From positions 1,877,501-1,941,500 of the forward strand of contig NZ_AP018795.1 of NCBI RefSeq assembly GCF_003966655.1: 64,000 bases of DNA. Direction: 5' to 3'. Shown piece by piece: positions 47,526-64,000 of the stretch. Position 1 is the first letter of the stretch. Each line of letters begins with the position of its first letter. Source of the DNA: Acidithiobacillus ferridurans. Lineage in GTDB: Bacteria; Pseudomonadota; Gammaproteobacteria; Acidithiobacillales; Acidithiobacillaceae. Below the pieces are notes generated by a model, which saw nothing but the letters and a program-made list of their open reading frames with translations, was not told the origin of the DNA and ran no database searches. A program made the position numbers and the translations under genes.

Positions 47526-48434
47526 TTATTCCATGATATTCATATTATTTAGCTCCTCGGCTAGGTAATTGGAAAAACGGGCGGCAGAGACCGAAATCCC
47601 TCGGTTTTTGAGTTGCGCACATACTAATGGTACGGGGCGTATGTCCACGGCAGAAAACGGTCGATACACGATATTTTCGTTAATGCGATTTTTGGGTATC
47701 CCCGTTGAAATGACAAAGCCAATATTTTGCGTGCCGTACAGCAGGCCACGCATCACCTCATAGGAGTTGCTCTCGGCGGCGATATGAGTTTCTGATCGTC
47801 GACCGTGGAGCACGGACTCCAGCATTTCGCGTGAGGTAAGCCCCGGTGTCGGCAACACCAAAGGATACTGGATGCAATCACTCAAGCGAAGTGTACCTTG
47901 ACTGGCAAGAGGGTGTGCGCGATCCATCGCCGCTACCAGAGGCTGCTCGGATATAGCAAGGTCGATGACGTCTGGGTGTCTGGGCGGTGCCACGATGACC
48001 ACCAGATCGGCTTCAAATGCTAACAACGCACGAATCGCATCGCTATGTTTCGCTACGGTCACCGAGAAGGAAACCCCAGGATACTGCTCTCTGAATGTAT
48101 TAATAATTCGTGGGATGAAATCGGCCGCCAATGCGGGGCTGACGGCGAGGGCAACATGGCCGCGGCGAAGTCCCTTGAGGCTATCAATTTCTGAGCGTAG
48201 GCGCTGCATGTCGGAAAGGTGCTGGCGTATATAACCCAGAAAAACTTCGCCTGCGGCCGAGAGACGCATCCCGCGCGGGTGCCGCTCGAAAATGCCAGTA
48301 CCCAGTTCTTCTTCCAGATCCTGAACGCGGCGATCCAGTGCCGATGCCGTGATATGCAGCTTTTCGGCAGCGCGGCGAACCGAGCCTTCCCTGACAATCA
48401 TGTCAATGTAGTTAAACAAGCGCAGGTGTTTCAT
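47526..48434 (-). CDS. LysR-type regulator, probable controller of the purine island
   Basis: A 302-residue LysR family regulator. Helix-turn-helix at the N-terminus (LFNYIDMIVREGSVRRAAEKLHITASALDRRVQDLEEELGTGIFERHPRG), then the effector-binding domain (VALAVSPALAADFIPRIINTFREQYPGVSFSV). The ATG at 48434 is preferred (GAGGGG upstream); an in-frame ATG at 48476 would add 14 residues and cover a palindrome. Divergent from the TonB-dependent receptor, the common layout for an activator controlling the adjacent genes. The effector could be a purine intermediate such as xanthine or urate, but this is inference. Confidence 0.9.
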   Translation of the reverse strand: MKHLRLFNYIDMIVREGSVRRAAEKLHITASALDRRVQDLEEELGTGIFERHPRGMRLSAAGEVFLGYIRQHLSDMQRLRSEIDSLKGLRRGHVALAVSPALAADFIPRIINTFREQYPGVSFSVTVAKHSDAIRALLAFEADLVVIVAPPRHPDVIDLAISEQPLVAAMDRAHPLASQGTLRLSDCIQYPLVLPTPGLTSREMLESVLHGRRSETHIAAESNSYEVMRGLLYGTQNIGFVISTGIPKNRINENIVYRPFSAVDIRPVPLVCAQLKNRGISVSAARFSNYLAEELNNMNIME

Positions 48435-48453
48435 GGCCAACCCCTCAAAGCGT

Positions 48454-48471
48454 TGCGTTTTATGTAACGCA
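48454..48471. promoter_or_regulatory. Palindrome at lysR start, candidate autoregulatory site
   Basis: TGCGTT and AACGCA with six bases between. It is 20 bases before the chosen lysR start, a usual position for LysR autorepression. A TGCGTTTT half-site also occurs upstream of exbB near 52617-52626. Confidence 0.4.
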
Positions 48472-48558
48472 TTCACAACAAAATAACACTTTAATCATAC
48501 ATTGTATATGGTCAGTATGTCTTAACAGACAAGATGCACAGAATCATAAGGCGATAGC

Positions 48559-48607
48559 TGGTGCATCGTTTTTGGGCAGAGAATATCGGTATGCACCATT
48601 ATGGTGC
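48559..48607. promoter_or_regulatory. Clustered TGGTGCA half-sites upstream of the receptor
   Basis: TGGTGCAT (48559-48566) is inverted by ATGCACCA (48591-48598) over 24 bases. The second copy is also half of a perfect 15-bp palindrome GCACCAT-T-ATGGTGC (48593-48607). A -10-like TATAAA lies at 48636-48641, so the palindrome would sit just upstream of the -35 region. Candidate binding site for the adjacent LysR protein or another purine regulator. Confidence 0.5.
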
Positions 48608-48709
48608 GGATAGAGAAAGGATACCTTACGTATCGTATAAATATACTGGTAGATCGGCATGGTATGGATATTGCGTATCTGGTAAGCAGTATAACCTCTG
48701 GAGTCTACA

Positions 48710-51043
48710 ATGAAGAAATCAAATAAACACCCTTTAAGGCAGAGCCTATTGGTAGCAACAGGACTACTGGGCAGCTCACTTCTACCGGTCTATGCAGAAG
48801 TGGCCACCCCTACATCGCCTCCGGCCAAAAAAGTATATAAAATTAAGTCGGTTTCTAAGAATTTGTTGAGAATCGTCGAGAAGGCGGCGCTTACCCAGGT
48901 CAAACCAGTCTATGGTGCAGAAACTGCACTCATCCCCCAAAAGTTTTTGGAGGGCCAGGAGTCTACGCAGAATGCCTCGACCATTCTGAGTTTTGTGCCT
49001 GGGGTCAATGCCACCAGCACGAACCCCATTGGCGTCAAGACCCATATTTCTGTACGTGGTTTCTCTCAGACACAAGTAGGCTACACCTTTGATAATTTGC
49101 CCATAGCTGATTTGTTCAATGGCGGTTTATCCGGAGGTAATAACAATTATGCGGATTTGACGAATCTCATCCCGGTTACGCTGGGCGAAACCTCCGGCAT
49201 CCGGGTGACCTATGGCACACCATCGCCAGATATCAACGCTGTCGGCGCTATTGGTGGGAATATTGATTATCTGCCAAAGATTCCGTCGGCAAAACGTTAC
49301 GAGTCAGTATTTGCCGGTTATGGTTCTTTCGACACACGCAGCTATGGTGCCGAGATCAATACCGGCGCAAACCCTGGTTATGGCAACCTCCTGTTGAGAT
49401 TCTCTTCGCGCCAGACTGCAGGCTACCTGGACCACAGCCCTGATCGCGAATATTCCTACTATGCGGCCTATGATTTACCGCAGATATCGCCGACCTCCAA
49501 GTGGTCAGTCATATTTTTGCTGAACAAAAACAAGGGCGCGACCGCGGCGCGAATGCCGGTTGCGCTGTTGCAGCAATATGGACCCTATTACCAGTGGCCG
49601 CTGTCCGTCACTTATGCGAATGGCACGGCGGAACATATGATGGCTATTGTGCAAAATAAAACGCTTATCTCATCTCACGCCGTTTTTGGTTTCAAGGGAT
49701 TTTATGCCTTTACCAACTCCAATCGTTTGGAGTATGTGAATCCCAGTGTCAATATGCCTTATAACAGCTTTGTTACTTTTTATCTCAATCCGGCACAAAC
49801 TGTCTGTCAGTATTCTGGAAATGATTTTGCAGGTAATAATTCTGCGGCATGTCAGGCGCAAACAATTAACGGGGATAATTATCACAGTTACAGCTATACC
49901 ACAAATACTTTCGGGTTTAATCCTTCTGTCGAGTGGCTCAGTCATTATGTGGACTTAAAAGCCGGAGGATTAGGCGCGTTCTCTCTGTATCATTCGCGGG
50001 ACTATGTTTACGGAACCCCGAATGTTCCCGAAGTGGCTGGTTACAATAACCTCTGGGATGAGCACGCATGGCGTCTGTACGGTAAGCTCTATGCGCAAGC
50101 AAAAATCAAGCTGGCGCACTCTTTGGCGATTACCCCTGGTCTGAAATATGAGACGGTGAGCACGCATATCAATGATGTGCCGGGGTACTACTACACCGTA
50201 GGTGCGAGCAGTGGCCGCTCTTACAGTGAGGTGAGTCCATACGCTGGTATCCAGTATAAGCCGATAAAAGCGGTAACTCTGTATGCCAACTATGCGGTTG
50301 GCTACAAGTATCCGAATATCACCGCATTCTATGCGGCTGACAGCAATGCTACATCGACATCGCCATCGACGCCAGTGACGATAAAACCGGAGCAAGTCAA
50401 CACCTACCAGTTTGGGGCGGCTTACAAGCATGATGGCCTTGATGCGAGTATTTCTTTCTATCGCTCAGACTTCACACATACGTTCAGCTCTTACTATGAT
50501 ACAACAACAGGGTTGACTTATGAGTACAATATCGGTTCTTCATCGTATCAAGGTATAAACATTGCCACTGCTTACGCATTAGATAATTATATATCGATTT
50601 ATGGTAACTACTCACTTCAGTCGGCACATTACACCTCAAACTCGTCAAGCGCTTATGGAGTTGCCACCAGCATTGGAGAGCCGCGGGCCAATACCCCGAC
50701 TTATCTTGCGGGTGTGGGGATAGAAGGGCATTACATGGGTACGCGCGCCCGATTGTACGGCAATCTGGTCGGCCCGCAATATATTGAGGCCAGTACGGGT
50801 GCACCAACTTCTATCAGTATGCCCGCCTATGCGACCATGAACTTCAACCTTGCGCATACCTTTCGAATACATCAGTACGGGTTTAAAAATGTGACGTTCA
50901 GCTTGAGCGGGGTGAATCTCCTGAACTCCGAAGCCTCGGTGCTGGAAAAGCAGTTTCCTTATATCAATCAGCCCGGCAATTATTTAGAAGCGGAGCCGAT
51001 GATGCCGCGCTCCTTCTTTGGGACGGTGAAATTAGTATTTTAA
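48710..51043 (+). CDS. TonB-dependent outer-membrane receptor
   Basis: A 777-residue receptor. Signal peptide QSLLVATGLLGSSLLPVYA (cleavage near residue 29), a short linker with VYKIKSV that may hold the TonB box, plug domain (residues ~85-200, with ILSFVPGVNATSTNPIGVKTHISVRGFSQTQVGYTFDNLPIA), then a 22-strand barrel rich in Tyr/Asn/Ser and ending SFFGTVKLVF with the typical terminal Phe. Base composition is lower in GC than the housekeeping part. Lying between the regulator and purine-degrading genes with its own ExbBD-TonB, it may import purines or nucleosides, but a siderophore-like ligand is not excluded. Confidence 0.92.
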   Translation: MKKSNKHPLRQSLLVATGLLGSSLLPVYAEVATPTSPPAKKVYKIKSVSKNLLRIVEKAALTQVKPVYGAETALIPQKFLEGQESTQNASTILSFVPGVNATSTNPIGVKTHISVRGFSQTQVGYTFDNLPIADLFNGGLSGGNNNYADLTNLIPVTLGETSGIRVTYGTPSPDINAVGAIGGNIDYLPKIPSAKRYESVFAGYGSFDTRSYGAEINTGANPGYGNLLLRFSSRQTAGYLDHSPDREYSYYAAYDLPQISPTSKWSVIFLLNKNKGATAARMPVALLQQYGPYYQWPLSVTYANGTAEHMMAIVQNKTLISSHAVFGFKGFYAFTNSNRLEYVNPSVNMPYNSFVTFYLNPAQTVCQYSGNDFAGNNSAACQAQTINGDNYHSYSYTTNTFGFNPSVEWLSHYVDLKAGGLGAFSLYHSRDYVYGTPNVPEVAGYNNLWDEHAWRLYGKLYAQAKIKLAHSLAITPGLKYETVSTHINDVPGYYYTVGASSGRSYSEVSPYAGIQYKPIKAVTLYANYAVGYKYPNITAFYAADSNATSTSPSTPVTIKPEQVNTYQFGAAYKHDGLDASISFYRSDFTHTFSSYYDTTTGLTYEYNIGSSSYQGINIATAYALDNYISIYGNYSLQSAHYTSNSSSAYGVATSIGEPRANTPTYLAGVGIEGHYMGTRARLYGNLVGPQYIEASTGAPTSISMPAYATMNFNLAHTFRIHQYGFKNVTFSLSGVNLLNSEASVLEKQFPYINQPGNYLEAEPMMPRSFFGTVKLVF

Positions 51044-51381: not shown

Positions 51382-52188
51382 ATGGGTACGAGCATGAACA
51401 TCGTCTGGCTTTATGCGTTTTCTGGGGCGATCGCGGGCATAATTTCAGGAATGCTAGGAGTTGGCGGCGGGATCGTCCTGGTCCCTATCCTGATTTTTAT
51501 CTTTGGTGTTCTCGCCATACCCGAAGGCATAGCAGCGCATATGGCAATCGGAACGTCCCTGGCAACAATTATATTTACCTCAATGTCGGCAATATATGCT
51601 CAGCACAGGCGAAAAGCAATTGACTGGAATCTGGTCAGAAAGCTTGCTCCGGCGACCATTCTTGGAAGCCTCATCAGCGGTTATCTGGCAGGGCTGATTC
51701 CCGGGCTGGCATTGAAAGCAATATTTGGCGTATTTTTAGTGGCGGCGGCGGTGCAAATGTTTTTTGAATGGCGACCGGCACCTCATCGTACCCTGCCAAG
51801 CCCCTTAGCCCTTTTGGGCATCGGTACGGGTATTGGCGCGCTCTCCGCAATGTTGGGGATTGGCGGTGGCACGCTCACGGTTCCATTCTTCAATTGGTGT
51901 AATGTGGATTTGCGTCGGGCCATAGCTACATCAACGACTTTGGGGTTTGGACTGGCGATCTTTGGCACCATTGGTTTCATTGCATCCGGATTTCAACGGC
52001 CCGGGTTGCCGTCGGCCAGTTTTGGTTATGTTTCCTTGCCAGCTATGCTAGGAATAGCAAGTACTGCAGTGCTATTCGCGCCGTTTGGCGTTCATTTATC
52101 ATATCGTCTTCCCGTGCGCCGACTCAAACGTATATTCGCTTTACTCCTCCTCTGCCTTGCGTTTAATATACTCCTGAATTTCATATAA
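51382..52188 (+). CDS. TSUP (TauE/SafE) family carrier
   Basis: A 268-residue membrane protein with about eight helices and the duplicated TSUP motif: SGMLGVGGGIVLVPILI in the first half and SAMLGIGGGTLTVPFFNW in the second. TSUP carriers move sulfite, sulfonates, sulfoacetate or other organic anions. Presence inside a purine island suggests export or import of an anionic intermediate, such as a ureide or glyoxylate, but sulfur chemistry of the host is an alternative. ATG 51382 has AGGAAG eleven bases upstream; ATG 51394 is an alternative. Confidence 0.88.
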   Translation: MGTSMNIVWLYAFSGAIAGIISGMLGVGGGIVLVPILIFIFGVLAIPEGIAAHMAIGTSLATIIFTSMSAIYAQHRRKAIDWNLVRKLAPATILGSLISGYLAGLIPGLALKAIFGVFLVAAAVQMFFEWRPAPHRTLPSPLALLGIGTGIGALSAMLGIGGGTLTVPFFNWCNVDLRRAIATSTTLGFGLAIFGTIGFIASGFQRPGLPSASFGYVSLPAMLGIASTAVLFAPFGVHLSYRLPVRRLKRIFALLLLCLAFNILLNFI

Positions 52189-52891
52189 CTATGGCATATA
52201 TGATTTGCCCATCAGCCGGAAGTAGCCTTCCCTACCACCTGAATTGTGATCTGGTAACCTGGTGGCCACTAAAGTCGACCAGGAAGAACTTACGGGTTAC
52301 CTTAAACATGCTGACTAATGCGGAGAAATCCGTCTACAAGCAGATGGTGTATGACTCCGTCACGAACTGTACGCCAAACTCCCCAGCTGGTTCAAGGTAC
52401 TTGCGTCCCTAGCAGCAATACTGTTTAGTTGGAAACAATCCCGGGGCATCGGTCACACGTCAATCGCAATGGATTGCCCCTATCCCTGATTAGGTATGCG
52501 CTCATTTCTCCGCGTACGCCGAGTGGCTTACGTTTGTCACGACCGGTAACGGCCGACCGGAAGCGATTGACGAGCGATCAATAGTGAACCCAACAGGTCT
52601 TTAACAGCGGCAAACCGTTGCGTTTTTTGAATACGTATCGCACCAAAAAAGAACTTTACCGAATCCAAAAATATGTCCATCATCATTATGAAAGAATTTT
52701 TTGGATGGAGGCGAAGCCTGCACTATTGTAGTGCAGTACAGCATTTCCTGCACCAAAAAAGAAGTTGCCAACTTGTGTTAGTGCGGTAACTATATGATCG
52801 TACGTGTGATATAGTCAATTGGTGCAAATGGCATGTTCTATGCTTAGTCTATGCCGGAGAGTTTTATCAATCACCTTGTGATGGAGTTTAT
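52189..52891. other. 700-bp gene-free region upstream of exbB with repeated sites
   Basis: No convincing gene: short frames (for example 52191-52412) match nothing. The left half looks like degraded sequence. The right half is AT-rich and full of repeats: GCACCAAAAAAGAA twice (52640-52653, 52750-52763, exactly 110 bases apart), the palindrome at 52718-52736, and TTGGTGCA (52819-52826), which inverts TGCACCAA (52749-52756). It most likely carries the exbB promoter and its operators. Confidence 0.55.
52718..52736. promoter_or_regulatory. Perfect 19-bp palindrome upstream of exbB
   Basis: CTGCACTA-TTG-TAGTGCAG, with 8-bp perfect arms. A related half TTAGTGCGG follows near 52779. Suits a dimeric repressor or activator site 156 bases before the exbB start. 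Confidence 0.5.
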
Positions 52892-53596
52892 ATGACCTCG
52901 TTCAGTTATCTCGTACACCTTGCCAATTACTCAGATGGTGTTCTGTACCTGTTGATGATTCTTTTCGTGGTTGAGCTTGCCGTGATTTTCGATCGGGGCT
53001 GGTATCTTCGTAACGCCATCAGCAAAGGTAAGAAAATTCTTTGGGGAATATCCGTCCGCGGCAAGTTGAGGCGCCCCGACCTGGAAGATCTGGTGGCTTT
53101 GTCCAAGGGTCTTCCCGAAGAATCTCTGCTGGGCGTGGCGCTCCGGCATTTCAATTTGATTCATCATTACGGTAGCGCGCGTGGAGAAGCCTTCGCGAAT
53201 CGTTTGGATGAAGCTATTTTTCTAATGACGCCCAATCTGGATAAGCGCCTTTGGATTTTGGACACCATCGTCACTCTGGCGCCCCTGCTGGGCCTGTTCG
53301 GAACCATACTGGGTATGTTCCACGCGTTCTCCATTCTTGCGGTGCCTGGTCATAATCCCACTTCTGTTACTGGCGGTGTTGCGGATGCGCTGATTGCCAC
53401 CGCGTCTGGACTCTTTATTGCCATGATCGGCTTACTGAGTTTTAACGCATTCAACAATGCTATCGAGAAAACCATTTTCCAGCTTGAGTCGCTGAAAGTG
53501 GTGCTCATGAATCGCTTGGATGGGGCGCCCGTGGTGCTAGAGGAGACAGCAGTCAACGCCACGTCATCAATTACCGCATCTGAAATGGCCGTATGA
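52892..53596 (+). CDS. exbB: ExbB-type proton channel subunit
   Basis: A 234-residue MotA/TolQ/ExbB protein. Three membrane helices: residues ~12-33 (VLYLLMILFVVELAVIF), ~128-155 (IVTLAPLLGLFGTILGMFHAFSIL) and ~165-190 (ALIATASGLFIAMIGLLSFNAF), with the large cytoplasmic loop between the first two. ExbB with ExbD uses proton motive force to energise TonB. Directly followed by exbD and tonB, so it is a dedicated set. RBS GGAG lies upstream of the ATG. Confidence 0.93.
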   Translation: MTSFSYLVHLANYSDGVLYLLMILFVVELAVIFDRGWYLRNAISKGKKILWGISVRGKLRRPDLEDLVALSKGLPEESLLGVALRHFNLIHHYGSARGEAFANRLDEAIFLMTPNLDKRLWILDTIVTLAPLLGLFGTILGMFHAFSILAVPGHNPTSVTGGVADALIATASGLFIAMIGLLSFNAFNNAIEKTIFQLESLKVVLMNRLDGAPVVLEETAVNATSSITASEMAV

Positions 53597-53644
53597 CGTT
53601 TCGGAAGATCTTTTTACTTTGGCAGGCAACGCAAGGAGTAAAGC

Positions 53645-54884: not shown

Positions 54885-54944
54885 CGCTCTTACGAGTTAG
54901 TAGTGCTTCGGTCCAACGGGTTGTAACACTGAGGGAGAAGGGTG

Positions 54945-56362
54945 ATGGGTGACAGACATTCAATAAGCGCCACGACAGAGGCAGAACGTACCAGCTCGGC
55001 GCCTCATGTCGCTCTGATCTGGCTCGCCGCGACCATGACCGCCTCCAGCCTGCCGGTCGGCGTCCTCATCGCCCAGTTGTTTCCTTTGGCGCCATTTCTG
55101 TGGGTTGTGCTGCTGGCGTCCACACTATTTGCCGCCGTGGGCATCCTCAGCATCCCGGGATTCCTGTATGGGATTCCGACCATGGCGGTTTCCGCACGCG
55201 TTTTTGGAAAGCCAGTCAATAAGCTGATTTCTCTAAGTAACTGGTTGTCTCAGTTGGGTTGGCAGGCCGTGGTGTTGGTACTTGTGGTGTATATCCTCCG
55301 CAGTGTTTTTGACAGCTATGGATTAGCACCTGCGAATAGCAGTATTTATTATGCCTTGGTATTGGCTATACTGGGCAATTTTGTGGTGCCCATTATCGGA
55401 TATAAGGCCATCGTGACGGCGCAGACGGTGGGGGCGCTATTCCTCGCCCTGTTTGCGATAGCCATACTGGTATATCTGCATGGTGGACAGGCGCTTCCGA
55501 TGCTGTCTGCCGTAGGCAACATTGACGGAATTCAAACCCTGGGTGGAATTTCATTGGCGCTCATGGGCGGCGCGTTCTCATGGACGATGTTTGCTTCGGA
55601 TTATTCGCGGTATGTGCGGTGTGACACGAGCCTGGCTAAAATGGCGCTATGGCCGAGCCTCGGCGGATTTGCGGGGGTAGCCTCATCCTCGCATTAGCCA
55701 TCACGCTGTATGTGCATGGCGGTATCCAGGTAGGACCTGCAGGAATAAGTCTCACGGCGGCCGGACTGGGCACTTCGGTACTGTATTTAGGTTTTTGCAC
55801 TTTTGCGATATTGGGATTGTTGGCATCCAATTTCCTGAACTCTTACAGTTCCGCTTTCAGCCTCGCGGTGGTAGTGGGTAAAGATTTGGATCGCAAGAAA
55901 GTTACGGTACTGGATGCCCTGCTGGCAACATTGGTCGGTATCTATATGCTTTTTGTAGCGCCGTCATTCTGGGAATCTTTTCAAACTTTCCTGGATTTGC
56001 TGATTATTGTTGCGGCACCGTGGACCGGTGTGATGATCATCTACGTGCTGTGGGACGTGCTCCCGGAAGCACGCGGAGGGTGGAGCAGAATGCTATATAG
56101 GCCTGCCAATGTCTGGGTGCTCGCTATAGGGATCGCAGTTACCATATTGTTCTCCAATAATCCGATTTGGGAGGGATACGGAGCGCATCTATTGCATGGT
56201 ACAGATATATCTCCATTGGCGGGTGTCGCGACGACAATTGTGGCATCAATACTCTATCGGATTTTGTTTTGTCACCATACGGCTACTGACGAGATGTGGC
56301 AGGTGAGAACGTTATCCAAACCGATTGTCAGTGAGATTACCGATGAAGGCGCCAACGGGTAA
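54945..56362 (+). pseudogene. NCS1-family purine/cytosine permease, single-base frameshift
   Basis: A cytosine/purine permease of the NCS1 type with twelve predicted helices. As given it is cut in two at a five-base G run (55673-55677): the first frame ends LGGFAGVASSSH-stop, the second resumes GGSLILALAITLYVHGG. One added G gives a seamless 472-residue protein of normal size. The N-terminal half has MTASSLPVGVLIAQLF and the central FSWTMFASDYSRYV, which is the usual DYSRY motif. GAGGGAG is seven bases before the ATG at 54945. Just upstream of guanine deaminase (2-base gap), so a nucleobase substrate is likely. Confidence 0.85.
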
Positions 56363-56364
56363 AG

Positions 56365-57594
56365 ATGATGGAAAAAATATTTAGGGCGTCGATACTTAAT
56401 CCGATAGATGCCAATACCTGGAGATTTTTCCAGGATGGTGCTTTAGGTGTCGATCAGGGCATCATTATGCGTATGGGTGATTTCACTACGATGCTGAGTC
56501 AGATCGACGCTGATACGGAAGTAGAAGATCTGGATGGGGTTATCGTTCCAGGCTTTGTCGATGTCCATTTGCATTGGGTGCAACATCGTGTCAGGGGACG
56601 TTTCTCTGGCGAACTCCTGACCTGGCTGCGAGAGTATATCTGGCCAGAAGAGGCGCGCTATGTGGATACCGATTTCGCCAGGGCTGCGGCGGCGCAATTC
56701 TATGGCGATGTATTGCGTGCGGGGACCGTGATGGGCATGAGCTATTCCAGCCCGCATGCCGAGGCCACGCAGATTGCACTGACGTCGATGCGTGGCGATT
56801 GGGTCATTGGTAACGTCCTGATGGCGATTAATGCGCCCCGTACATTGACTGACTACAGCCTGCATGATCCTGACGCGTTGCGTGCGTTTATGCGCCAAAC
56901 GGATATTACACACTATGCACTGACACCCCGTTTTGCACCCAATCTGACGGCAGCATCGCTGAAGGCATTGGGACAGATCGCCGCCGAGAGTCCATGTTTA
57001 ATCCAGACGCATCTCGCGGAATCGGTCGCGGAGCTGCAATGGGTTAAAGAGCTGTTTCCCGACGCTGCTCACTATACTGAGGTGTATGACCGCGCGGGTC
57101 TTCTGACGCCCCGAACGATATTGGGCCACTGTATTGAGATGCGTGACGAGGAATGGCGCTGTCTTCGGGCACGCGGCTCCTGGGTGGCGCATTGTCCTAC
57201 CAGTAATGAGGCGCTGGGAAACCGACGCATGCCCTTGGAGCAAGTACGTGCTTACAACATCCCCTTTGCGCTGGCGAGTGACATAGGCGGTGGTCCCAGC
57301 CATAGCATGCTACATGTTATGCAGCGATTTCTGGGCGTACATCGGGAAGCTGGCGTTTCTGTTGTGCCGCAGGAGGCCTTGTATCGTTCTACCAAGGCGG
57401 GGGCCGAATGTATGGGCAGAGGATCCATCGGCGGTGATTTGACGGTGGGGAAACGTGCCGATTTTGTGCTCCTGCCGCAAAAGCCCGCAGTGGATTCTAT
57501 AGAGCACTGGTTTGAGGAATGCTTAAGTGGTAACCCCACTGATCTGGAACAGCGTCCGCTGGGGACCTGGCTCAGCGGTGCACGGGTGGCCTAG
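56365..57594 (+). CDS. guaD: Guanine deaminase-like amidohydrolase
   Basis: A 409-residue metal-dependent amidohydrolase. Zinc ligands: PGFVDVHLHWVQ, the His in QTHLAESVAELQWVKELFPDAAHYTEVYDRAGLL, GHCIEMRDEEW and the Asp in ASDIGGGPSHSMLHVMQRF. The AHCPTSNEALG segment and the spacing match guanine deaminase, which converts guanine to xanthine and ammonia. Some 8-oxoguanine or ammelide deaminases look similar, so substrate is likely but not certain. It lies two bases after the permease gene. Confidence 0.85.
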   Translation: MMEKIFRASILNPIDANTWRFFQDGALGVDQGIIMRMGDFTTMLSQIDADTEVEDLDGVIVPGFVDVHLHWVQHRVRGRFSGELLTWLREYIWPEEARYVDTDFARAAAAQFYGDVLRAGTVMGMSYSSPHAEATQIALTSMRGDWVIGNVLMAINAPRTLTDYSLHDPDALRAFMRQTDITHYALTPRFAPNLTAASLKALGQIAAESPCLIQTHLAESVAELQWVKELFPDAAHYTEVYDRAGLLTPRTILGHCIEMRDEEWRCLRARGSWVAHCPTSNEALGNRRMPLEQVRAYNIPFALASDIGGGPSHSMLHVMQRFLGVHREAGVSVVPQEALYRSTKAGAECMGRGSIGGDLTVGKRADFVLLPQKPAVDSIEHWFEECLSGNPTDLEQRPLGTWLSGARVA

Positions 57595-57641
57595 GAGATG
57601 TATATGCATAGCCTTATAAAACATACGGAGCAACACCTTTT

Positions 57642-58685: not shown

Positions 58686-58708
58686 AAAACTCATCAGGGA
58701 GAAATCTT

Positions 58709-59710
58709 GTGAAGAAATACACGGTTTGGAAGCATATAATGTTGTGTGGTGCAGCCGGCTTCTCATTGACGGTGCCGCTGGCATACGCTCAGGCTATACC
58801 GGCGGCTGCAAAAATGCGTCCGCAAGTGATCGTGCTGACAGCATTCCCGCCCGAATGGCAAGCATGGACGGTGCAAAAATCTTTTCAGCATCAAGTGTTG
58901 CATGTGCCAGGTCTCATCACGCCCTTGATTTGCGATAGTAAAGGCGTCTGTGTTACGGAAACCGGGGAAGGGGAAATCAATGCCGCAGTCACCGTCACCA
59001 GTCTGGTGAAAGACACGGCTCTGGATGTGAAGAAGACCATTTTTATTCGTAGCGGCATTGCCGGAGGTGTGGACGAAGAAAACTCTGCATTGGGCAGTGT
59101 GTACATCAATAATTGGATAATTTCTTGGGCTTTTGGACATCATTACCTGAGTGATAAAAAGCAGTTGGCATGGTCCCCTCCGGGCTGCACAGATTATGCC
59201 GTGCCAGGCCACTGCGAGAATTATACTCGGAATATCATGGAAAATCTAGCATATAAAATAAATCCGGCACTGCTGAACATGGCGGTAAATGCCTCTGCCC
59301 ATGTCGCGTTGGATAACTCAGTAGAAGCCAAGAAACTGGATAAAATATTTGGTATCTCTGCGGCGCCGAAAGTGATGGTGGGAGCCACTATCACGGGCAA
59401 TGATTTTTGGATAGGCAAAGAGAATCAGGCTATAGCCGAGCAAATTGTGCATCTCTATACCCATGGAAAGACGACGTATACCAATACCGCCATGGAGGAT
59501 CTTGGGGATGTGGCGGCGCTCTCGCGTTTCGGTTTGGCGGATCATTATCTGTCCATACGAGGGATCTCTGACGTGGATGTCCCGCCCCCCGGTAAGACCG
59601 AAGAGGAAATTTGGAAAACAGGCGATTTATATGCCAGCGCTCTCGCCGAGCGTAATGCGGTGATCGTCACCGAGGCCGTTATCGCGCGCGTGTTACAGGA
59701 TGCTGCATGA
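58709..59710 (+). CDS. Exported NUP-family purine nucleoside protein
   Basis: A 333-residue protein of the NUP (purine nucleoside permease) family, with a nucleoside-phosphorylase-like fold. A clear signal peptide (MLCGAAGFSLTVPLAYA) directs export; the body has VIVLTAFPPEWQAW, GVCVTETGEGEINAAVTVTSL, FIRSGIAGGVDEENSALGSVYI and TAMEDLGDVAALSRFG. The GTG 58709 is preferred (AGGGAG six bases upstream), giving a tidy signal peptide; ATG 58682 overlaps the deaminase stop and is an alternative. It probably binds or cleaves nucleosides in the periplasm, supplying free bases to the NCS1 permease; transport by this soluble-looking protein seems unlikely. Confidence 0.8.
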   Translation: MKKYTVWKHIMLCGAAGFSLTVPLAYAQAIPAAAKMRPQVIVLTAFPPEWQAWTVQKSFQHQVLHVPGLITPLICDSKGVCVTETGEGEINAAVTVTSLVKDTALDVKKTIFIRSGIAGGVDEENSALGSVYINNWIISWAFGHHYLSDKKQLAWSPPGCTDYAVPGHCENYTRNIMENLAYKINPALLNMAVNASAHVALDNSVEAKKLDKIFGISAAPKVMVGATITGNDFWIGKENQAIAEQIVHLYTHGKTTYTNTAMEDLGDVAALSRFGLADHYLSIRGISDVDVPPPGKTEEEIWKTGDLYASALAERNAVIVTEAVIARVLQDAA

Positions 59711-59771
59711 ACATACGGGTCACCGAAATATCCGTTGGTGCGTTTCTGGCCCCGGAGCAAGGAGTGTCACC

Positions 59772-62030
59772 GTGTCTTTGACCTTGATGAAGCAGCGACC
59801 TGACCAGCAGGCGGCGACCCCCAGCCGTGTCGACGGTGTTGCCAAAGTCAGGGGAGTGGCTCTCTATGTCGATGATCTGCCCTGCGCAGATGTGATCTAT
59901 GGAGCGACGGTGCGCACTACTGAGGCTGGTGGAACGCTGCAGGAGGTGGCTTTTGATCCCGCCATAGACTGGTCGGAATTTGTGGTGGTGACGGCGCGGG
60001 ATATTCCGGGTAGGAATGCCGTAAGGCTCCTGGAGGATGACCAGGTAGTGCTTGTTGACCACGCGTTTCGGCACGCTGGGGAGGCCGTGGTATTACTGGC
60101 TCACGCAGACCAGGAAAAACTCAGAAAAGCGCTGAAAGGTGTTTCTCTGGTGGAATTACCCAACCCATCTCCGATTTTTGACATCGATGCGGCACTCGCT
60201 GCGCAGCAAGAAATCATACCCGGCAATATTTATACGGATTATCTTCTGGATCGGGGTAATGTTGCGGAGGGAGAGCATCTTGCCGGTGTCGTCATCGAAG
60301 AGCGCTTTCTCACCCCATCCCAGGAGCAACTCTATATTGAGCCGCAAGGTATGCTGGCGCATTTGCAGAAAGACGGCAGCATTCTGGTAGAAGGTTCCAT
60401 GCAGTGTCCCTACTACGTGTTGGACGCATTGGTTCAGTGTCTGGGGATGGATAAGGATCATCTGCGGGTGGTGCAAAGTACCACCGGTGGGGCCTTTGGC
60501 GGCAAGGAAGATTATCCCTCGGTGATTGCCTGTCATGCGGCGTTACTGGCGCTCAAAGCGGGTGGCCGTCCGGTAAAACTCGTTTATGAGCGGGGTGAGG
60601 ATTTGCGGGTAACGCCTAAGCGTCATCCTTCCCGCACCCTGATTCGTTTGGGGGCCAATAAGGCCGGAGAATTGCAGTTTATCGATATGGATTTCGCCAT
60701 TGATGGCGGGGCTTATCGTACCCTCAGTCCGGTAGTGCTCTCCCGTGGTGTTATTCATGCACCGGGACCATATAAGTGCCCCCATATCCGGGTCAGGGGG
60801 CGCGCCGTGGCGACCAACCATCCGCCCTTTGGCGCATTTCGCGGATTTGGTGCGCCGCAAAGTATTTTTGCCATGGAAGTGGCCATGGACCGGCTGGCGG
60901 GAAAACTGGCTATGGACCCTGCCGAATTGCGCCGGATAAATTTGTTGCGTACCGGCGATGTGAATCCCACGGGTGATGTGATGGGAGCTGACTGCTTTGC
61001 CCATGCCGCGCTCGATGCGGCATTGGAGCACACGCATTACTACCATCGGCTGGCGGAGTATAGGGCCTGGAATGCGGCCGGACACCAGACCCGCAAAGGT
61101 ATTGGCCTGGCGACTTTTGCCCATGGCGCTGGTTTTACCGGCAATGGCGAATTGTATCTGGCGTCCCGGGTTTCTCTGCAAGCTCTGGCCAATGGCCATG
61201 TCGAAATTCTCTGTTCCAACACTGAAATGGGGCAGGGCGCGGCGACCACGCTGGTCCAAATTGCGGCTGACGCGCTGGGCCTGCCCATGGATTGCGTACA
61301 TCTGGCGCAGGCGGATACCTCCAGGGTGCCAAATTCCGGACCGACGGTCGCCTCCCGCACCTGTATGGTGGTCGGGGATCTCATCCAGAAGGCGGCGGGA
61401 CAATTATTGCAACGGCTGCGGGAAACGGCGGCGTTAGCGGCGTCCCATGACGCACAAAGTTTTGCCGCAGCCTGTGCCCGGCTTTGCGCAGCCGCCGGGG
61501 ATACGCTGGTGACCGCACAATACCAACCGCCGGCGGACATGCGTTGGGATGAGCAGGCCTTTTTGGGGCGGGCTTACGCCAGTTATGCCTGGGCGGCTTA
61601 CATTGCCGAAGTGGAAGTGGATGTGTTGACGCTCGCAACGCGGGTGCGTGATTTTACTGCGGTACAGGAAATCGGCAATGCGGTGCATCCGGTGATTGTG
61701 CAGGGCCAGATTGAGGGGGGCGTCGCCCAGGGTATTGGTTATGCCCTCTATGAGGATGTGCTCTGGAATGAGCGCGGGGTCATGGCCAATGACCGTCTGA
61801 CCAATTACATCATCCCCACTAGCGCGGATTTAGGATTTATTCACGTGGTGTTGCTGGAAGGCGGGTTGGGAGCTGGTCCCAAAGGAGCAAAGGGCGTCGG
61901 TGAATTGCCCATGGATGGTCCGGCGCCCGCTATCGTCAACGCGATTCAGCAGGCCTTGGATATCGATATTCGCCAGATCCCGGTCAGGCCTGAAATGCTG
62001 CTGGAGCTGACGGTGAGCGGAGGGAATTGA
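59772..62030 (+). CDS. Xanthine dehydrogenase molybdenum-binding subunit
   Basis: A 752-residue molybdopterin subunit of the XDH family. Pterin/Mo motifs: STTGGAFGGKEDYPSVIA, FGAFRGFGAPQSIFAMEVAMDRLA (Arg of the substrate pocket), and the C-terminal GAKGVGELPMDGPAPAI with the catalytic Glu. It hydroxylates hypoxanthine and xanthine to urate. Start is GTG 59772 with AAGGAG at 59759-59764; longer in-frame starts lie in a 60-base gap after the NUP gene. Followed by Fe-S and FAD subunits in the same operon; no XDH-specific chaperone is seen. Other hydroxylases of this family cannot be fully excluded. Confidence 0.9.
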   Translation: MSLTLMKQRPDQQAATPSRVDGVAKVRGVALYVDDLPCADVIYGATVRTTEAGGTLQEVAFDPAIDWSEFVVVTARDIPGRNAVRLLEDDQVVLVDHAFRHAGEAVVLLAHADQEKLRKALKGVSLVELPNPSPIFDIDAALAAQQEIIPGNIYTDYLLDRGNVAEGEHLAGVVIEERFLTPSQEQLYIEPQGMLAHLQKDGSILVEGSMQCPYYVLDALVQCLGMDKDHLRVVQSTTGGAFGGKEDYPSVIACHAALLALKAGGRPVKLVYERGEDLRVTPKRHPSRTLIRLGANKAGELQFIDMDFAIDGGAYRTLSPVVLSRGVIHAPGPYKCPHIRVRGRAVATNHPPFGAFRGFGAPQSIFAMEVAMDRLAGKLAMDPAELRRINLLRTGDVNPTGDVMGADCFAHAALDAALEHTHYYHRLAEYRAWNAAGHQTRKGIGLATFAHGAGFTGNGELYLASRVSLQALANGHVEILCSNTEMGQGAATTLVQIAADALGLPMDCVHLAQADTSRVPNSGPTVASRTCMVVGDLIQKAAGQLLQRLRETAALAASHDAQSFAAACARLCAAAGDTLVTAQYQPPADMRWDEQAFLGRAYASYAWAAYIAEVEVDVLTLATRVRDFTAVQEIGNAVHPVIVQGQIEGGVAQGIGYALYEDVLWNERGVMANDRLTNYIIPTSADLGFIHVVLLEGGLGAGPKGAKGVGELPMDGPAPAIVNAIQQALDIDIRQIPVRPEMLLELTVSGGN

Positions 62031-62032
62031 TC

Positions 62033-62482
62033 ATGACGACGATGCGCATCAACGGTAGGGCATTTCAGAGCAGCTCAGCGCCGAACACCCGTTTACTGGA
62101 TGTATTGCGTAATGAATGCGACCTCAAGGGGGCCAAAGAAGGCTGCGGTGAAGGAGAGTGTGGCGCCTGCGCGGTACTGGTGAATGGCAAGCTGGTGAAT
62201 AGCTGTCTGGTTCCTCTCGGGCAGATGGAGCAGGCGGAGATTACCACGGTGGAGGGCCTTCCCGAAGATAGTGCCCTGGCACGGGCCTTTGTTCACTGCG
62301 GCGCCACCCAATGCGGGATTTGTACGCCGGGTATGATGCTCGCGGCGACCGCCCTGTTGGCGGAGCATGCGAATCCGACACTGGAGGAGATTCGCTGGGG
62401 CCTGAGCGGCAATCTCTGTCGCTGTACCGGGTATGGGCGCATTTATGCGGCCATCGCCCAGGCCGCCGGAGGGGTCTGCTGA
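62033..62482 (+). CDS. Xanthine dehydrogenase iron-sulfur subunit
   Basis: A 149-residue protein with two [2Fe-2S] clusters: plant-ferredoxin type (KEGCGEGECGACAVLVNGKLVNSC) and the all-alpha type (HCGATQCGICTPGMMLAA ... LCRCTGYGRI). It passes electrons between Mo and FAD subunits. ATG 62033 is used, eight bases after GGAGGG; overlaps the FAD gene by one base (TGATG). Confidence 0.94.
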   Translation: MTTMRINGRAFQSSSAPNTRLLDVLRNECDLKGAKEGCGEGECGACAVLVNGKLVNSCLVPLGQMEQAEITTVEGLPEDSALARAFVHCGATQCGICTPGMMLAATALLAEHANPTLEEIRWGLSGNLCRCTGYGRIYAAIAQAAGGVC

Positions 62483-63348
62483 TGTCTGATTGGATAAGGC
62501 CGCGACATTTGCCGGAAGCCCTGGAGCTATTGGCGGCAGCCCCCCGCCCATATCGGGTGATTTCGGGCGGAACCGATCTTATGGTGGAGAGTCACCTCGC
62601 CCCGGAACGGCGCCCGGAGTCCTGGCTGGACATCAGCGGACTGCAGGAGTTGCAGGGGCTGCAGATTACGGAAGATGGTATCCGGATTGGCGCGGCTACT
62701 TCCCTGGAAGCGATTCGCCGGCATGCGGAAGTGGTCGCCCACTGGCCGATGCTGGCAGCCTCGGCGGCGGTGACCGGGGCGCCGCCCATTCAAAATCGCG
62801 CCACGCTGGGTGGCAACGTTTGCAATGCCTCACCTGCGGCGGATAACGCGCCGGTATTGCTGGCTTATGGCGCACGTCTGGAGATCGCCCATCATCACGG
62901 TTCGCGCTGGTTGCCTTATGGAGATTTCCATCAGGGGTATCGTAAGACGGCCTTGCAAGCTGGAGAGTTACTCAGCGCTCTGTGGATTCCTTACCCCCCC
63001 AAACACAGTCGCAGCTATTTTCGGAAAGTCGGAACACGGGCAGCGCAAGCTATTGCCAAGGTGAGTATCGCGGCGCTCATCGAAGAAGATAGTGATGGAA
63101 TTATTCGGAGCGCGCGTTTTGGCATGGCGAGTGTGGCGGCGACTCCCTGTACCTTGCCATCCGTGAGCCACTATCTGCTGGGACGTGCGTTGCGTGATAT
63201 TTCCGAAACTGATGTGCGCCATGGGGTAAGGCAGGATATTGCACCGATTCAGGATATTCGCTCGACGGCAGAATACCGTTTGGAGATAGTCTCCCGGTTG
63301 GTACTGGAGGCCATACATAGACGTAGTAAATCGAAAAAGGAGGATTAG
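62482..63348 (+). CDS. Xanthine dehydrogenase FAD-binding subunit
   Basis: A 288-residue FAD subunit. FAD motifs VISGGTDLMVE near residue 25 and ATLGGNVCNASPAADNAPVLLAYGARLEI near residue 110; the C-terminal CO_deh_flav_C domain has RKVGTRAAQAIAKVSIAAL. It completes the alpha-beta-gamma enzyme. The C-terminus is Lys/Arg-rich. Ureidoglycolate lyase follows after three bases. Confidence 0.93.
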   Translation: MSDWIRPRHLPEALELLAAAPRPYRVISGGTDLMVESHLAPERRPESWLDISGLQELQGLQITEDGIRIGAATSLEAIRRHAEVVAHWPMLAASAAVTGAPPIQNRATLGGNVCNASPAADNAPVLLAYGARLEIAHHHGSRWLPYGDFHQGYRKTALQAGELLSALWIPYPPKHSRSYFRKVGTRAAQAIAKVSIAALIEEDSDGIIRSARFGMASVAATPCTLPSVSHYLLGRALRDISETDVRHGVRQDIAPIQDIRSTAEYRLEIVSRLVLEAIHRRSKSKKED

Positions 63349-63351
63349 AAT

Positions 63352-63936
63352 ATGGGTACCTATGCAAAGCAGACAGAGGCGGTTTATGTAGATGTTCCAT
63401 TGCTGGATGCGACCCCGGAGAATCTCGCGGAATACGGTGTGATGATTGGCGAGGCGGTACACCGGCCTGGACTTTCGATTCCCTTTTATAAGGGGAGTGT
63501 GGAAGAGGGGCAAAATCTCGATTTTGAATATACCGGTCGCGCGGTGGTCCGCACGGCGCGGATATCCCACCGCAACCCCGAGATTACCTGGCTGGAACGG
63601 CACCTCAATATGACGCAGATTTTTGTCGGGCTGGGCAGCATTCCCTTCGCCATGGTGTTGGGTAAACCCAATCAGGGCAGCGGGGAAAATGTCCCCCGCC
63701 TGGACGACGTCCGCGCTTTTCGCATTCCAGCGGGGCAGGGGGTGATGATTTATGCGGGTACCTGGCACGATTTCCCCATGTCCATTGGCGATCCGGTGAC
63801 GGTGATGACCATGAATTCTGACGAGGTGGTCACTGCTTTGGCGAACGCTCAGGCAGCAGATGAGATGGATGACGGTGATGTGTACAAGATCGACATCCAA
63901 CGTCGCACCGGGCGGGTACTCCGGGTTCCCTTTTAG
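63352..63936 (+). CDS. allA: Ureidoglycolate lyase
   Basis: A 194-residue AllA-family protein cleaving (S)-ureidoglycolate to glyoxylate and urea at the end of the ureide pathway. Family blocks: ERHLNMTQIFVGLGSIPFAMVLG, AFRIPAGQGVMIYAGTWHDFPMSIGDPVTVMTMNSDE. AAGGAGG eight bases upstream of the ATG makes a strong ribosome site. Position right after the XDH genes shows the operon proceeds past urate. Confidence 0.88.
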   Translation: MGTYAKQTEAVYVDVPLLDATPENLAEYGVMIGEAVHRPGLSIPFYKGSVEEGQNLDFEYTGRAVVRTARISHRNPEITWLERHLNMTQIFVGLGSIPFAMVLGKPNQGSGENVPRLDDVRAFRIPAGQGVMIYAGTWHDFPMSIGDPVTVMTMNSDEVVTALANAQAADEMDDGDVYKIDIQRRTGRVLRVPF

Positions 63937-63954
63937 TCGCAGAAGGCGAAGACC

Positions 63955-64000
63955 ATGCGTACCTCCGTCTACCGGTTTTTTACGACAGACCCTGCCGACG
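63955..64000 (+). CDS. Start of a further gene, cut by the window edge
   Basis: ATG at 63955 after an AAGG-containing site opens a frame MRTSVYRFFTTDPAD that runs to the edge. Too short to name. Given its place after allA it may be another ureide or XDH-accessory gene. Confidence 0.4.
   Translation, partial: MRTSVYRFFTTDPAD

What the first reader, a model, noticed from the sequence alone, without database searches (positions are those of the whole stretch)
47526..64000. A purine acquisition and catabolism island combining TonB-dependent uptake with xanthine dehydrogenase and ureide genes
Seen: regulator, outer-membrane receptor, TSUP carrier, ExbB-ExbD-TonB, NCS1 permease, guanine deaminase, adenine/adenosine deaminase, exported NUP protein, three XDH subunits and AllA, all but the regulator in one direction, several with overlapping or 2-3 base junctions. 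Known: these families together cover base deamination, oxidation to urate and ureidoglycolate cleavage. Inferred: a complete envelope-to-cytoplasm route for using purines as nitrogen source, unusual in a presumed autotroph. The combination of a private TonB system with a purine pathway is not one I know as a described system.
Basis: partly seen in the sequence, partly recalled or inferred. Interest (0 to 1): 0.82.

Follow-up and report, generated by a model that had tools for sequence, protein, structure and literature searches.

The report
TonB-fed purine operon lacking uricase
An acid-loving sulfur/iron bacterium carries a conserved gene block that seems to import purines and break them down, but with an enzyme pair of unknown function where the usual urate-degrading enzymes were looked for and not found, which points to an undescribed way of opening the purine ring.

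Summary
The gene block is real and larger than reported. In this Acidithiobacillus genome the operon runs past the window: ExbB-ExbD-TonB-NCS1-guanine deaminase-adenine/adenosine deaminase-NUP-XDH(3)-AllA-like-AtzD-like-XdhC-AtzG-AtzE-AtzH/HpxZ-MobA-like-GGT. The order recurs in relatives, and a palindrome shared by the LysR/receptor interval and the ExbB upstream region supports one regulon. 'AllA' fails the ureidoglycolate-lyase cut-offs. It sits beside an AtzD-family ring-opening enzyme with the Group IV active-site signature, a group with no known substrate (Peat 2013). Of 80 named AtzD loci, 13 of 13 with this signature have the AllA-like gene directly upstream; 0 of 67 others do. Best reading: purines go to xanthine/urate, Group IV AtzD with its AllA-like partner opens the ring, and AtzGEH/HpxW-type enzymes release ammonium. 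The purine role is well supported; the ring-opening substrate is inferred and untested. In this assembly NCS1 is frameshifted and GGT is broken by a frameshift and an IS701-family element; 11 and 12 relatives have them open.

The parts
47526..48476 (-). LysR-family regulator; 41% identical to the LysR encoded beside atzD on pADP-1
   Evidence: PF00126, PF03466; in 12 of 14 related loci
48592..48607 (.). operator-like palindrome between LysR and the receptor, TGCACCATTATGGTGC
48710..51043 (+). TonB-dependent outer-membrane receptor
   Evidence: barrel 101.7 bits, plug 34.7; in 12 of 14 related loci; no PDB chain at E<=1e-5, so the substrate is not told by homology
51382..52188 (+). TauE/SafE (TSUP) carrier; not a conserved part of the island
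   Evidence: 187.6 bits; near the island in only 2 of 14 loci
52719..52734 (.). second copy of the palindrome upstream of ExbB, TGCACTATTGTAGTGC
   Evidence: exact GCAC-N7-GTGC within 350 bp before ExbB in 9 of 10 genomes where that region was held
52892..53596 (+). ExbB/TolQ-family proton channel
   Evidence: PF01618
53645..54043 (+). ExbD/TolR-family protein
   Evidence: PF02472
54135..54884 (+). TonB
   Evidence: (TIGR01352 47.9, cut-off 27.1)
54942..56362 (+). NCS1 nucleobase permease, frameshifted in this assembly (frames 54942-55697 and 55649-56362)
   Evidence: one base missing at 55673 relative to G014; longest open stretch 459-477 aa in 11 of 11 relatives examined
56365..57594 (+). 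guanine-deaminase-family amidohydrolase
   Evidence: (325.8 bits, below cut-off 351); best solved relative 6ohb guanine deaminase, 200 bits
57642..58685 (+). adenosine/adenine deaminase family; closest solved chain 3ou8 (recalled as an adenine deaminase)
   Evidence: 480.9 over cut-off 419; 359 bits
58682..59710 (+). NUP-family (purine nucleoside permease / PNP superfamily) protein with a signal-like N-terminus (judged by eye)
   Evidence: PF06516 161.5 bits; sequence
59700..62030 (+). XDH-family molybdopterin subunit (ORF; the true start is probably downstream)
   Evidence: GGKE glutamate of R. capsulatus XDH kept
62027..62482 (+). XDH-family [2Fe-2S] subunit
62482..63348 (+). XDH-family FAD subunit
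63352..63936 (+). AllA-like protein, a discrete subfamily found next to Group IV AtzD
63955..64000 (+). start of the AtzD-family (Group IV) ring-opening amidohydrolase, which runs to 65046 outside the window. After it, in coordinates that continue the window (L002 + 59000): XdhC about 65043-66005, AtzG-like 66002-66202, AtzE-like 66199-67596, AtzH/HpxZ-like up to 67996, MobA-like NTP transferase up to 68613, GGT/HpxW-like about 68616-71785 (broken)

Best explanation
A purine-scavenging operon under an AtzR-like LysR regulator. SHOWN (sequence, conservation): the gene set, its order, the shared palindrome, the absence from the genome of each classical urate-to-allantoin and allantoin-opening family that was searched, and the pairing of the AllA-like gene with Group IV AtzD in every such locus examined. 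INFERRED: (1) the receptor, energised by its own ExbB-ExbD-TonB, takes up scarce nucleosides or bases; the exported NUP protein frees bases in the periplasm; NCS1 imports them. (2) Adenine and guanine are deaminated to hypoxanthine and xanthine; XDH, matured by XdhC and perhaps the MobA-like protein, makes xanthine and urate. (3) Instead of uricase, the Group IV AtzD enzyme hydrolyses the imide of the six-membered ring (of xanthine or urate, or of a barbiturate-like product that the AllA-like protein makes by releasing urea from an oxidised urate), as barbiturase does with barbiturate. (4) The open-ring acyl-urea is deaminated and decarboxylated by AtzGE and AtzH (as carboxybiuret or oxalurate are elsewhere), and the resulting amide is hydrolysed by the HpxW-like GGT, giving ammonium. 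The presence of an HpxW-like enzyme without AtzF argues that the last intermediate is an amide of a carbon acid, not allophanate. Estimated probabilities: purine catabolism 0.82; AtzD and AllA-like act on a purine-derived ring 0.57; which ring (xanthine, urate, alloxan-like) is open.
For: Upstream enzymes are of purine type: guanine-deaminase family, adenine/adenosine deaminase, NUP, XDH family with XdhC. Conserved: AllA-like and AtzD in 14 of 14 Acidithiobacillaceae loci; XDH subunits, GDA, ADA, NUP, AtzG/E/H, GGT in 13 of 14; TBDR and LysR in 12 of 14; several absences are contig or stretch ends. Linkage recurs in other lineages: L058 (a TBDR fragment at the stretch edge, NUP, GGT, GDA, XDH, AllA-like, AtzD, XdhC, MobA-like, ExbB/D, TonB, NCS1 in another order; no ADA, AtzG/E/H or LysR hit there) and the Bacillota MAGs L053/L054 (XDH-family subunits at 27-43% identity, AllA-like, AtzD, an amidase, a deaminase-family amidohydrolase; NCS1 in L053 only). 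Classical steps not found: PF01014 0 of 30, PF09349 0 of 30, PF00576 0 of 28, PF06181 none in own or congeners (3 of 28, all in other families), HpxO below cut-off, allantoinase below cut-off (that gene is a dihydroorotase, 742.8 over 529), allophanate hydrolase below cut-off. Group IV signature (Met at AtzD 321, Thr345, Arg346) instead of the cyanurate (T, G, G) or barbiturate (H, V, S/A) signature. Pairing 13/13 against 0/67; the 28 Group IV rows are one side of a branch at 100/100.
Against: I found no assay of any of these enzymes on a purine ring (paper searches listed under Tried and rejected). NCBIfam calls the AtzD protein a cyanuric acid amidohydrolase above its curated cut-off (395.6 over 360). 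LysR, AtzD, AtzE and AtzH are recognisably related to the cyanuric-acid operon of pADP-1 (41, 42, 54, 65% identity), and three of four other non-Klebsiella AtzE neighbourhoods read on plasmids hold atzF. XDH scores stay below every NCBIfam equivalog cut-off, and the two best-scoring solved chains are aldehyde oxidoreductases (249.7, 248.8 bits) narrowly ahead of R. capsulatus XDH (240.9). The guanine deaminase is below its NCBIfam cut-offs. The deaminase-family gene of L053 is called 5'-deoxyadenosine deaminase (532.3 over 522), so that locus need not be about free bases. In G022 the three XDH genes, XdhC and the MobA-like gene are missing as a set while AllA-like, AtzD, AtzGEH and GGT stay; XDH elsewhere in that genome was not tested. 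In L051, L052, L055-L057 and L114 the pair has no XDH hit beside it. No urease is in this genome, so urea released by an AllA-type lyase would be wasted. The HpxO search had no control genome over its cut-off.
Confidence: 0.57

Rival explanations
1. Composite operon: the purine genes convert bases to xanthine/urate, while the LysR-AtzD-AtzG-AtzE-AtzH part is a true cyanuric-acid (or oxonate) branch that uses triazines, perhaps formed by oxidation of urate, as extra nitrogen.
For: NCBIfam cyanuric acid amidohydrolase above cut-off; pADP-1 has the order LysR, atzD, atzG, atzE, hpxZ, atzF with 41-65% identity to own LysR, AtzD, AtzE, AtzH; chemical oxidation of uric acid can yield cyanuric acid and triuret (PMC7948467, figure legend seen).
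Against: Specificity residues 321, 345, 346 differ from those given for the cyanurate-hydrolase groups; no allophanate hydrolase over cut-off in the genome; partnership with the AllA-like protein, which none of the 67 SGG-type loci has.
Confidence: 0.16
2. Ordinary uricolysis: uricase and the later enzymes exist but belong to unrecognised or divergent families elsewhere in the genome; AllA is a real ureidoglycolate lyase and AtzD a side activity.
For: Only named families were searched; AllA-like keeps the AllA fold (target-normalised TM 0.77-0.82).
Against: Four consecutive classical steps (urate oxidation, HIU hydrolysis, OHCU decarboxylation, allantoin opening) are missing at once in this genome, and PF01014, PF06181, PF00576 and PF09349 also in the congeners searched; AllA-like scores 302-357 bits to its own model while the 55 other matching genomes among 398 score 20-38.
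Confidence: 0.08
3. Oxidative pyrimidine route: the XDH-like enzyme is a uracil/thymine dehydrogenase making barbiturate, AtzD is a barbiturase, AtzGEH/GGT finish ureidomalonate to malonate and ammonium.
For: Barbiturase chemistry fits AtzD and the acyl-urea enzymes that follow; XDH equivalog cut-offs are not reached and aldehyde oxidoreductases score slightly higher than XDH; NCS1 carriers can take pyrimidines (Pfam description).
Against: Barbiturase signature (Asn195, His321, Lys325, Val345) absent; two purine-deaminase-family genes and a NUP protein lie in the operon; the XDH-like subunit keeps the GGKE glutamate of R. capsulatus XDH, which the two aldehyde oxidoreductases aligned in the same output lack.
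Confidence: 0.11
4. Urate is the end product and is excreted; the AtzD/AllA pair scavenges an unrelated ureide that happens to be co-regulated.
For: The pair occurs without an XDH hit nearby in L051, L052, L055-L057 and L114, and in G022.
Against: The pair directly follows the XDH genes in 13 of 14 Acidithiobacillaceae loci and follows XDH-family genes in L053, L054, L058.
Confidence: 0.08

Closest known systems
AtzD / cyanuric acid hydrolase operon atzDGEHF of Pseudomonas sp. ADP plasmid pADP-1
   Same: LysR next to AtzD, then AtzG, AtzE, AtzH(HpxZ); own LysR, AtzD, AtzG, AtzE, AtzH are 41, 42, 25, 54, 65% identical, AtzD to AtzH in the same relative order
   Different: Group IV specificity residues; AllA-like partner; XdhC inserted; no AtzF, an HpxW-like GGT instead; purine and TonB genes upstream; LysR not adjacent to AtzD here
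Group IV of the AtzD/barbiturase (Toblerone-fold) family, Peat et al. 2013 (PMC3758960)
   Same: Signature Arg195, Met/Thr321, Arg325, Thr345, Arg346; that paper's members are Acidithiobacillus and Sulfobacillus
   Different: That paper gives no substrate and, in the passages read, no gene context; here the group is tied to an AllA-like partner and in several lineages to XDH-family genes
hpxWXYZ oxalurate/oxamate module of Klebsiella
   Same: DUF4089-type protein, AtzE-family amidase, HpxZ, GGT/HpxW; the GGT of G014 matches 5hft chains A+B with 223 + 213 bits (identity of 5hft as HpxW recalled)
   Different: AtzE is about 50% identical to the Klebsiella amidase and 54% to pADP-1 AtzE; no source of oxalurate was recognised in this genome
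AllA ureidoglycolate lyase (PF04115)
   Same: Fold
   Different: 18-21% identity, fails equivalog cut-offs, no recognised ureidoglycolate supply
Aerobic purine operons with XDH, guanine deaminase and uricolytic genes (for example Klebsiella hpx, Bacillus puc; recalled)
   Same: Deaminases, XDH, XdhC, transporter
   Different: No uricase, HIU hydrolase, OHCU decarboxylase or allantoinase found; TonB receptor and private ExbBD-TonB included

Membership tests
Cyanuric acid hydrolase (AtzD/TrzD) | PF09663 domain over full length | tested here: met
   434.2 bits, residues 5-359; NCBIfam CyanAcHdlAtzD 395.6 over cut-off 360
Cyanuric acid hydrolase (AtzD/TrzD) | Specificity residues Arg195, Thr321, Arg325, Gly345, Gly346 (Peat 2013) | tested here: not met
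   Own residues R, M, R, T, R by the alignment to 4bvq
Cyanuric acid hydrolase (AtzD/TrzD) | Allophanate hydrolase AtzF in the genome | tested here: not met
   Best hits 219.6 and 185.4 bits against cut-off 511.05; the second is this operon's AtzE
Cyanuric acid hydrolase (AtzD/TrzD) | Activity on cyanuric acid | not testable with these tools
   needs assay
Barbiturase (Bar, Group VI) | Asn195, His321, Lys325, Val345, Ser/Ala346 | tested here: not met
Toblerone-fold Group IV | Arg195, Met/Thr321, Arg325, Thr345, Arg346 | tested here: met
   the 28 STR rows of 97 are one side of a branch, 100/100 (root unknown, some long branches)
Ureidoglycolate lyase AllA | PF04115 and AllA fold | tested here: met
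   44.6 bits over 23; Foldseek target TM 0.77-0.82 to 1xsq/1xsr/1yqc/2bdr
Ureidoglycolate lyase AllA | Reaches a curated equivalog cut-off | tested here: not met
   34.3 bits against 260 (best model), all five hits below cut-off
Ureidoglycolate lyase AllA | Ureidoglycolate-producing pathway in the genome | tested here: not met
   allantoinase below cut-off; allantoicase and allantoate amidohydrolase not searched
Classical urate-allantoin pathway | Uricase (PF01014), PuuD (PF06181) or HpxO (NF033623) | tested here: not met
   (no control genome passes the HpxO cut-off)
Classical urate-allantoin pathway | HIU hydrolase (PF00576) and OHCU decarboxylase (PF09349) | tested here: not met
   (4 control genomes positive in each)
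Xanthine dehydrogenase | Mo, FAD and 2Fe-2S subunits plus XdhC | tested here: met
   Pfam domains; XdhC NCBIfam 149.9 against cut-off 161.6
Xanthine dehydrogenase | Purine specificity | tested here: inconclusive
   GGKE glutamate kept, but XDH equivalog cut-offs not reached (442.5 against 783.65) and aldehyde oxidoreductases are the top solved hits
HpxWXYZ oxalurate/oxamate module | HpxX/Y/Z and HpxW homologues adjacent | tested here: inconclusive
   HpxZ model 193.7 over 135, but the pADP-1 AtzH is annotated hpxZ too; GGT fits 5hft best when its two chains are summed

The most novel reading that the evidence does not exclude
Group IV AtzD plus its AllA-like partner form a uricase-independent purine-ring-opening module, a previously undescribed step in bacterial purine catabolism. 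The acyl-urea processing enzymes known from cyanuric-acid degradation (AtzG, AtzE, AtzH) would here serve a natural purine pathway, a candidate for the pre-industrial role of this enzyme family.
Probability: 0.43. Interest if true: 0.88.

Novelty: new variant of a known kind. Interest (0 to 1): 0.7.

Why it matters
The role of Group IV AtzD enzymes was left open in 2013 (PMC3758960, section 16), and cyanuric acid, the substrate of most characterised family members, was described as not known to be a natural product (PMC4051656, passage). This locus gives a concrete, testable substrate class and a partner protein. If right, it adds a way to cleave the purine ring without uricase, explains how chemolithoautotrophic acidophiles could recover nitrogen from nucleic-acid debris, and offers a source from which triazine-degrading operons may have been assembled.

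Tried and rejected
Rejected: (a) that the missing uricolytic genes lie just right of the window: ORFs of at least 110 aa over about 15 kb listed, ten of them scanned, none such. (b) Allantoinase at C1:2219079: it is a dihydroorotase. (c) HpxO: two hits of about 32 bits against a cut-off of 500. (d) The count of GCAC-N7-GTGC in the window as evidence by itself: 4 found, 2.33 expected, 21 of 100 shuffles reach 4; the fuller pattern was made from the two sites themselves, so its low expectation is circular. What counts is recurrence at the same place in relatives; those are related genomes, and I computed no probability for it (exact sites run at 0.069 per kb over all the stretches). (e) HpxZ versus AtzH as a way to tell oxalurate from cyanurate chemistry: the pADP-1 protein carries the same label. 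(f) The receptor's substrate: no PDB chain at E<=1e-5. (g) Rfam: no match at gathering score in the window. (h) Promoter/terminator scan: numbers near those of shuffles.

Literature: 10 searches listed no paper that I recognised as describing this operon or a purine role for Group IV AtzD. In some searches only 20 of 358, 203, 346 and 161 papers were listed. Most subscription papers are not held, among them Seffernick 2012 and Aukema 2020. Of PMC3758960 I saw passages and section 16; of PMC4051656, PMC7948467, PMC12625717, PMC5270733, PMC11698098 passages; of PMC4016543 the abstract and outline; all others only as search listings.

L047-L050 and L052 are the same contigs as G015, G002, G006, G005, G043 by length, so the further loci with the pair are nine (L051-L058, L114; L058's family is not told). 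Several of these contigs are short. OHCU decarboxylase was absent in 8 of those 9 genomes and present in one (G065 = L114). XDH-family genes of L053/L054 rest on tblastn alone. The phylum survey scored at most 8 candidates a genome.

These weaken the purine evidence a little, so I lowered the main confidence from 0.60 to 0.57 and the novel case from 0.45 to 0.43, and moved three rivals up by 0.01.

Full report
WHAT IS THERE. The window is C1:1877501-1941500 of a 2.92 Mb single-contig genome. The genus is Acidithiobacillus: contigs of the 'same genus' genomes G002, G006 and G005 have the same lengths as the named Acidithiobacillus records L048, L049 and L050. Reading on to the right the gene run continues: AllA-like (63352-63936), an AtzD-family ring-opening amidohydrolase (63955-65046), XdhC, a 66-aa AtzG-like protein (similar to pADP-1 AtzG, 25% over 52 aa), an AtzE-family amidase, an AtzH/HpxZ protein, a MobA-like NTP transferase and a gamma-glutamyltransferase-family gene.

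DAMAGE IN THIS ASSEMBLY. The NCS1 permease lies in two frames; against G014 it lacks one base at 55673, while 11 of 11 relatives examined have one open stretch of 459-477 aa. The GGT gene has a one-base frameshift (L002:10155) and is interrupted by an IS701-family element flanked by imperfect inverted repeats; 12 of 12 relatives examined have an open stretch of 538-546 aa. The two single-base frameshifts could be sequencing errors; the insertion is harder to explain so. This strain may have lost part of the function that its relatives keep.

CONSERVATION. A protein search with AtzD in 57 relatives found it in 15: 11 of 17 genomes of the genus, 3 of 12 others of the family, and G043, a gammaproteobacterial MAG. 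In the 14 Acidithiobacillaceae loci, AllA-like and AtzD are present in 14; GDA, ADA, NUP, the three XDH genes, AtzG/E/H and GGT in 13; TonB, NCS1, XdhC, the MobA-like gene, TBDR and LysR in 12; ExbD in 11; ExbB in 10; TSUP in 2. Some absences are contig ends or the end of the stretch I fetched (G003, G011, G015); G005 has about 12.8 kb upstream with no hit to the block, and G022 lacks XDH, XdhC and the MobA-like gene as a set. LysR and TBDR lie upstream of ExbB in G000 and G014 and downstream of GGT in the other 10 loci that hold them. A copy on the A. caldus SM-1 megaplasmid is broken up by insertion sequences. A palindrome, GCAC-N7-GTGC, lies both between LysR and TBDR and before ExbB; before ExbB it is exact in 9 of 10 genomes where that region was held (not G019); in the LysR-TBDR interval it is exact in 6 of 12 and within one arm mismatch in 10 of 12, not always at the aligned place. 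This supports one regulon.

THE MISSING PATHWAY. Family searches found in this genome no uricase PF01014 (0 of 30 genomes), no OHCU decarboxylase PF09349 (0 of 30), no HIU hydrolase PF00576 (0 of 28), no PuuD PF06181 in own or congeners (3 of 28, all in other families), no HpxO over cut-off, no allantoinase (the best gene is a dihydroorotase), no allophanate hydrolase over cut-off and no urease (present in 6 of 28 genomes). The same searches rang over cut-off in 1-4 of 14 control genomes for all of these except HpxO (0 of 14). Allantoicase and allantoate amidohydrolase were not searched.

THE UNUSUAL PAIR. Peat et al. 2013 divided the AtzD/barbiturase fold into six groups by phylogeny and by residues 195, 321, 325, 345 and 346. 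Their Group IV (Arg, Met/Thr, Arg, Thr, Arg; Acidithiobacillus and Sulfobacillus) matched neither cyanurate nor barbiturate hydrolases, and its role was left open. The present protein has that signature. Against this, the NCBIfam cyanuric acid amidohydrolase model accepts it (395.6 over 360). In a named scan, 13 of 80 AtzD loci carry the STRAEH motif and all 13 have the AllA-like gene upstream on the same strand, 2-56 bases between the match ends; none of the 67 SGG-type loci has a hit to it. The 28 STR rows of a 97-row tree are one side of a branch (100/100; one change in 100% of 200 bootstrap trees; root unknown, some long branches). The AllA-like subfamily is discrete: in 398 phylum genomes it scores 356 and 302 bits in two, both AtzD-paired, and at most 38 bits in the 55 others with a match. 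Its model (pLDDT 90.8) has the AllA fold at 18-21% identity. Outside the 14 Acidithiobacillaceae loci, XDH-family genes are adjacent in L053, L054 and L058 and not seen in L051, L052, L055-L057, L114, some of which are short contigs. Rows with XDH-family genes beside them have Met at 321; those without have Thr, except G022, which has Met and no XDH in the locus. That is a correlation over few lineages.

THE LOWER PART. Own LysR, AtzD, AtzG, AtzE and AtzH are 41, 42, 25, 54 and 65% identical to those of the pADP-1 cyanuric-acid operon, AtzD to AtzH in the same relative order. The intact GGT of G014 fits 5hft chains A and B (223 + 213 bits); the best single chains are 2nlz and 2i3o (241 and 231), and the best whole chain named gamma-glutamyltranspeptidase is 2e0w (184). 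5hft as the Klebsiella oxamate amidohydrolase HpxW is recalled. Besides A. caldus and pADP-1, five AtzE neighbourhoods were read: three hold atzF, the Klebsiella one holds hpxX and hpxZ, one holds neither, so the amidase does not decide between the two chemistries. In established chemistry (recalled), AtzGE plus AtzH convert R-CO-NH-CO-NH2 to R-CO-NH2 with release of ammonium and CO2. With AtzF absent and an HpxW-like enzyme present, R is more likely a carbon acid than a carbamate, which disfavours cyanurate and favours a barbiturate-like or purine-derived ring.

HOW FIRM THE PURINE PART IS. ADA passes its model (480.9 over 419). The guanine deaminase does not (325.8 against 351), though its best solved relative is guanine deaminase. 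The XDH subunits pass Pfam but no XDH equivalog, and two aldehyde oxidoreductases score slightly above R. capsulatus XDH, while the XDH-type GGKE glutamate is kept. In L053 the deaminase-family gene is named 5'-deoxyadenosine deaminase. The set as a whole still reads as purine catabolism.

MECHANISM AND DOUBT. I propose purine uptake, deamination, XDH, ring opening by Group IV AtzD with the AllA-like protein, then AtzGEH and HpxW. Uptake and deamination rest on family assignment; ring opening on gene context, missing alternatives and active-site residues; no activity is shown. Whether the ring is xanthine, urate or an oxidised derivative is undecided: G022's XDH-less locus hints at xanthine, the gene order at urate. 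The acid oxidation of urate to alloxan and urea (recalled) would give the AllA-like enzyme a urea-releasing role and AtzD a barbiturate-like substrate, but no oxidase for urate was found.

VERDICT. The interest lies just beyond the window edge. Novelty: a new variant of a purine catabolic operon; categorically new chemistry only if the ring-opening step is confirmed.

Noticed in passing
L043/L044 (G022): The island lacks XDH (3 genes), XdhC and the MobA-like gene as a set, but keeps NCS1, GDA, ADA, NUP, AllA-like, AtzD, AtzGEH and GGT. XDH elsewhere in that genome was not tested.
   Followed up: partly
L055, L056, L057: The AllA-like/AtzD pair lies next to a 2-dehydropantoate-reductase-like gene (family confirmed in L056 and L057) and an alpha/beta-hydrolase-like gene that in L057 is fused to a thiamine-pyrophosphate enzyme: another unknown pathway using the same pair.
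   Followed up: partly
AtzD alignment, column of AtzD residue 321: Within Group IV, Met at this site goes with XDH-family genes nearby and Thr with their absence (G022 excepted); few lineages.
   Followed up: partly
L020 / L045 (G005): Second AtzD-family gene with the cyanurate-type SGGAEH motif in the same genus, without an AllA-like hit beside it.
   Followed up: no
L171 (A. caldus SM-1 megaplasmid NC_015851): Copy of the island on a megaplasmid, split by IS5, IS21 and ISNCY transposases.
   Followed up: no
L175 (NZ_CP131786): Plasmid cluster LysR, ring-opening amidohydrolase, atzF, DUF4089 protein, AtzE, hpxZ, SLC23 permease, OprD porin: a triazine-type operon with its own uptake genes.
   Followed up: no
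AllA-like model: DUF4867 (9gyy/9gyz, unmodelled ligand density) is the next structural neighbour of the AllA-like protein after the AllA structures.
   Followed up: no
window 54135-54884: The TonB protein has a long proline-rich middle; it aligns from end to end in four relatives (G014, G007, G013, G002), and in the others only its C-terminal part matched.
   Followed up: no
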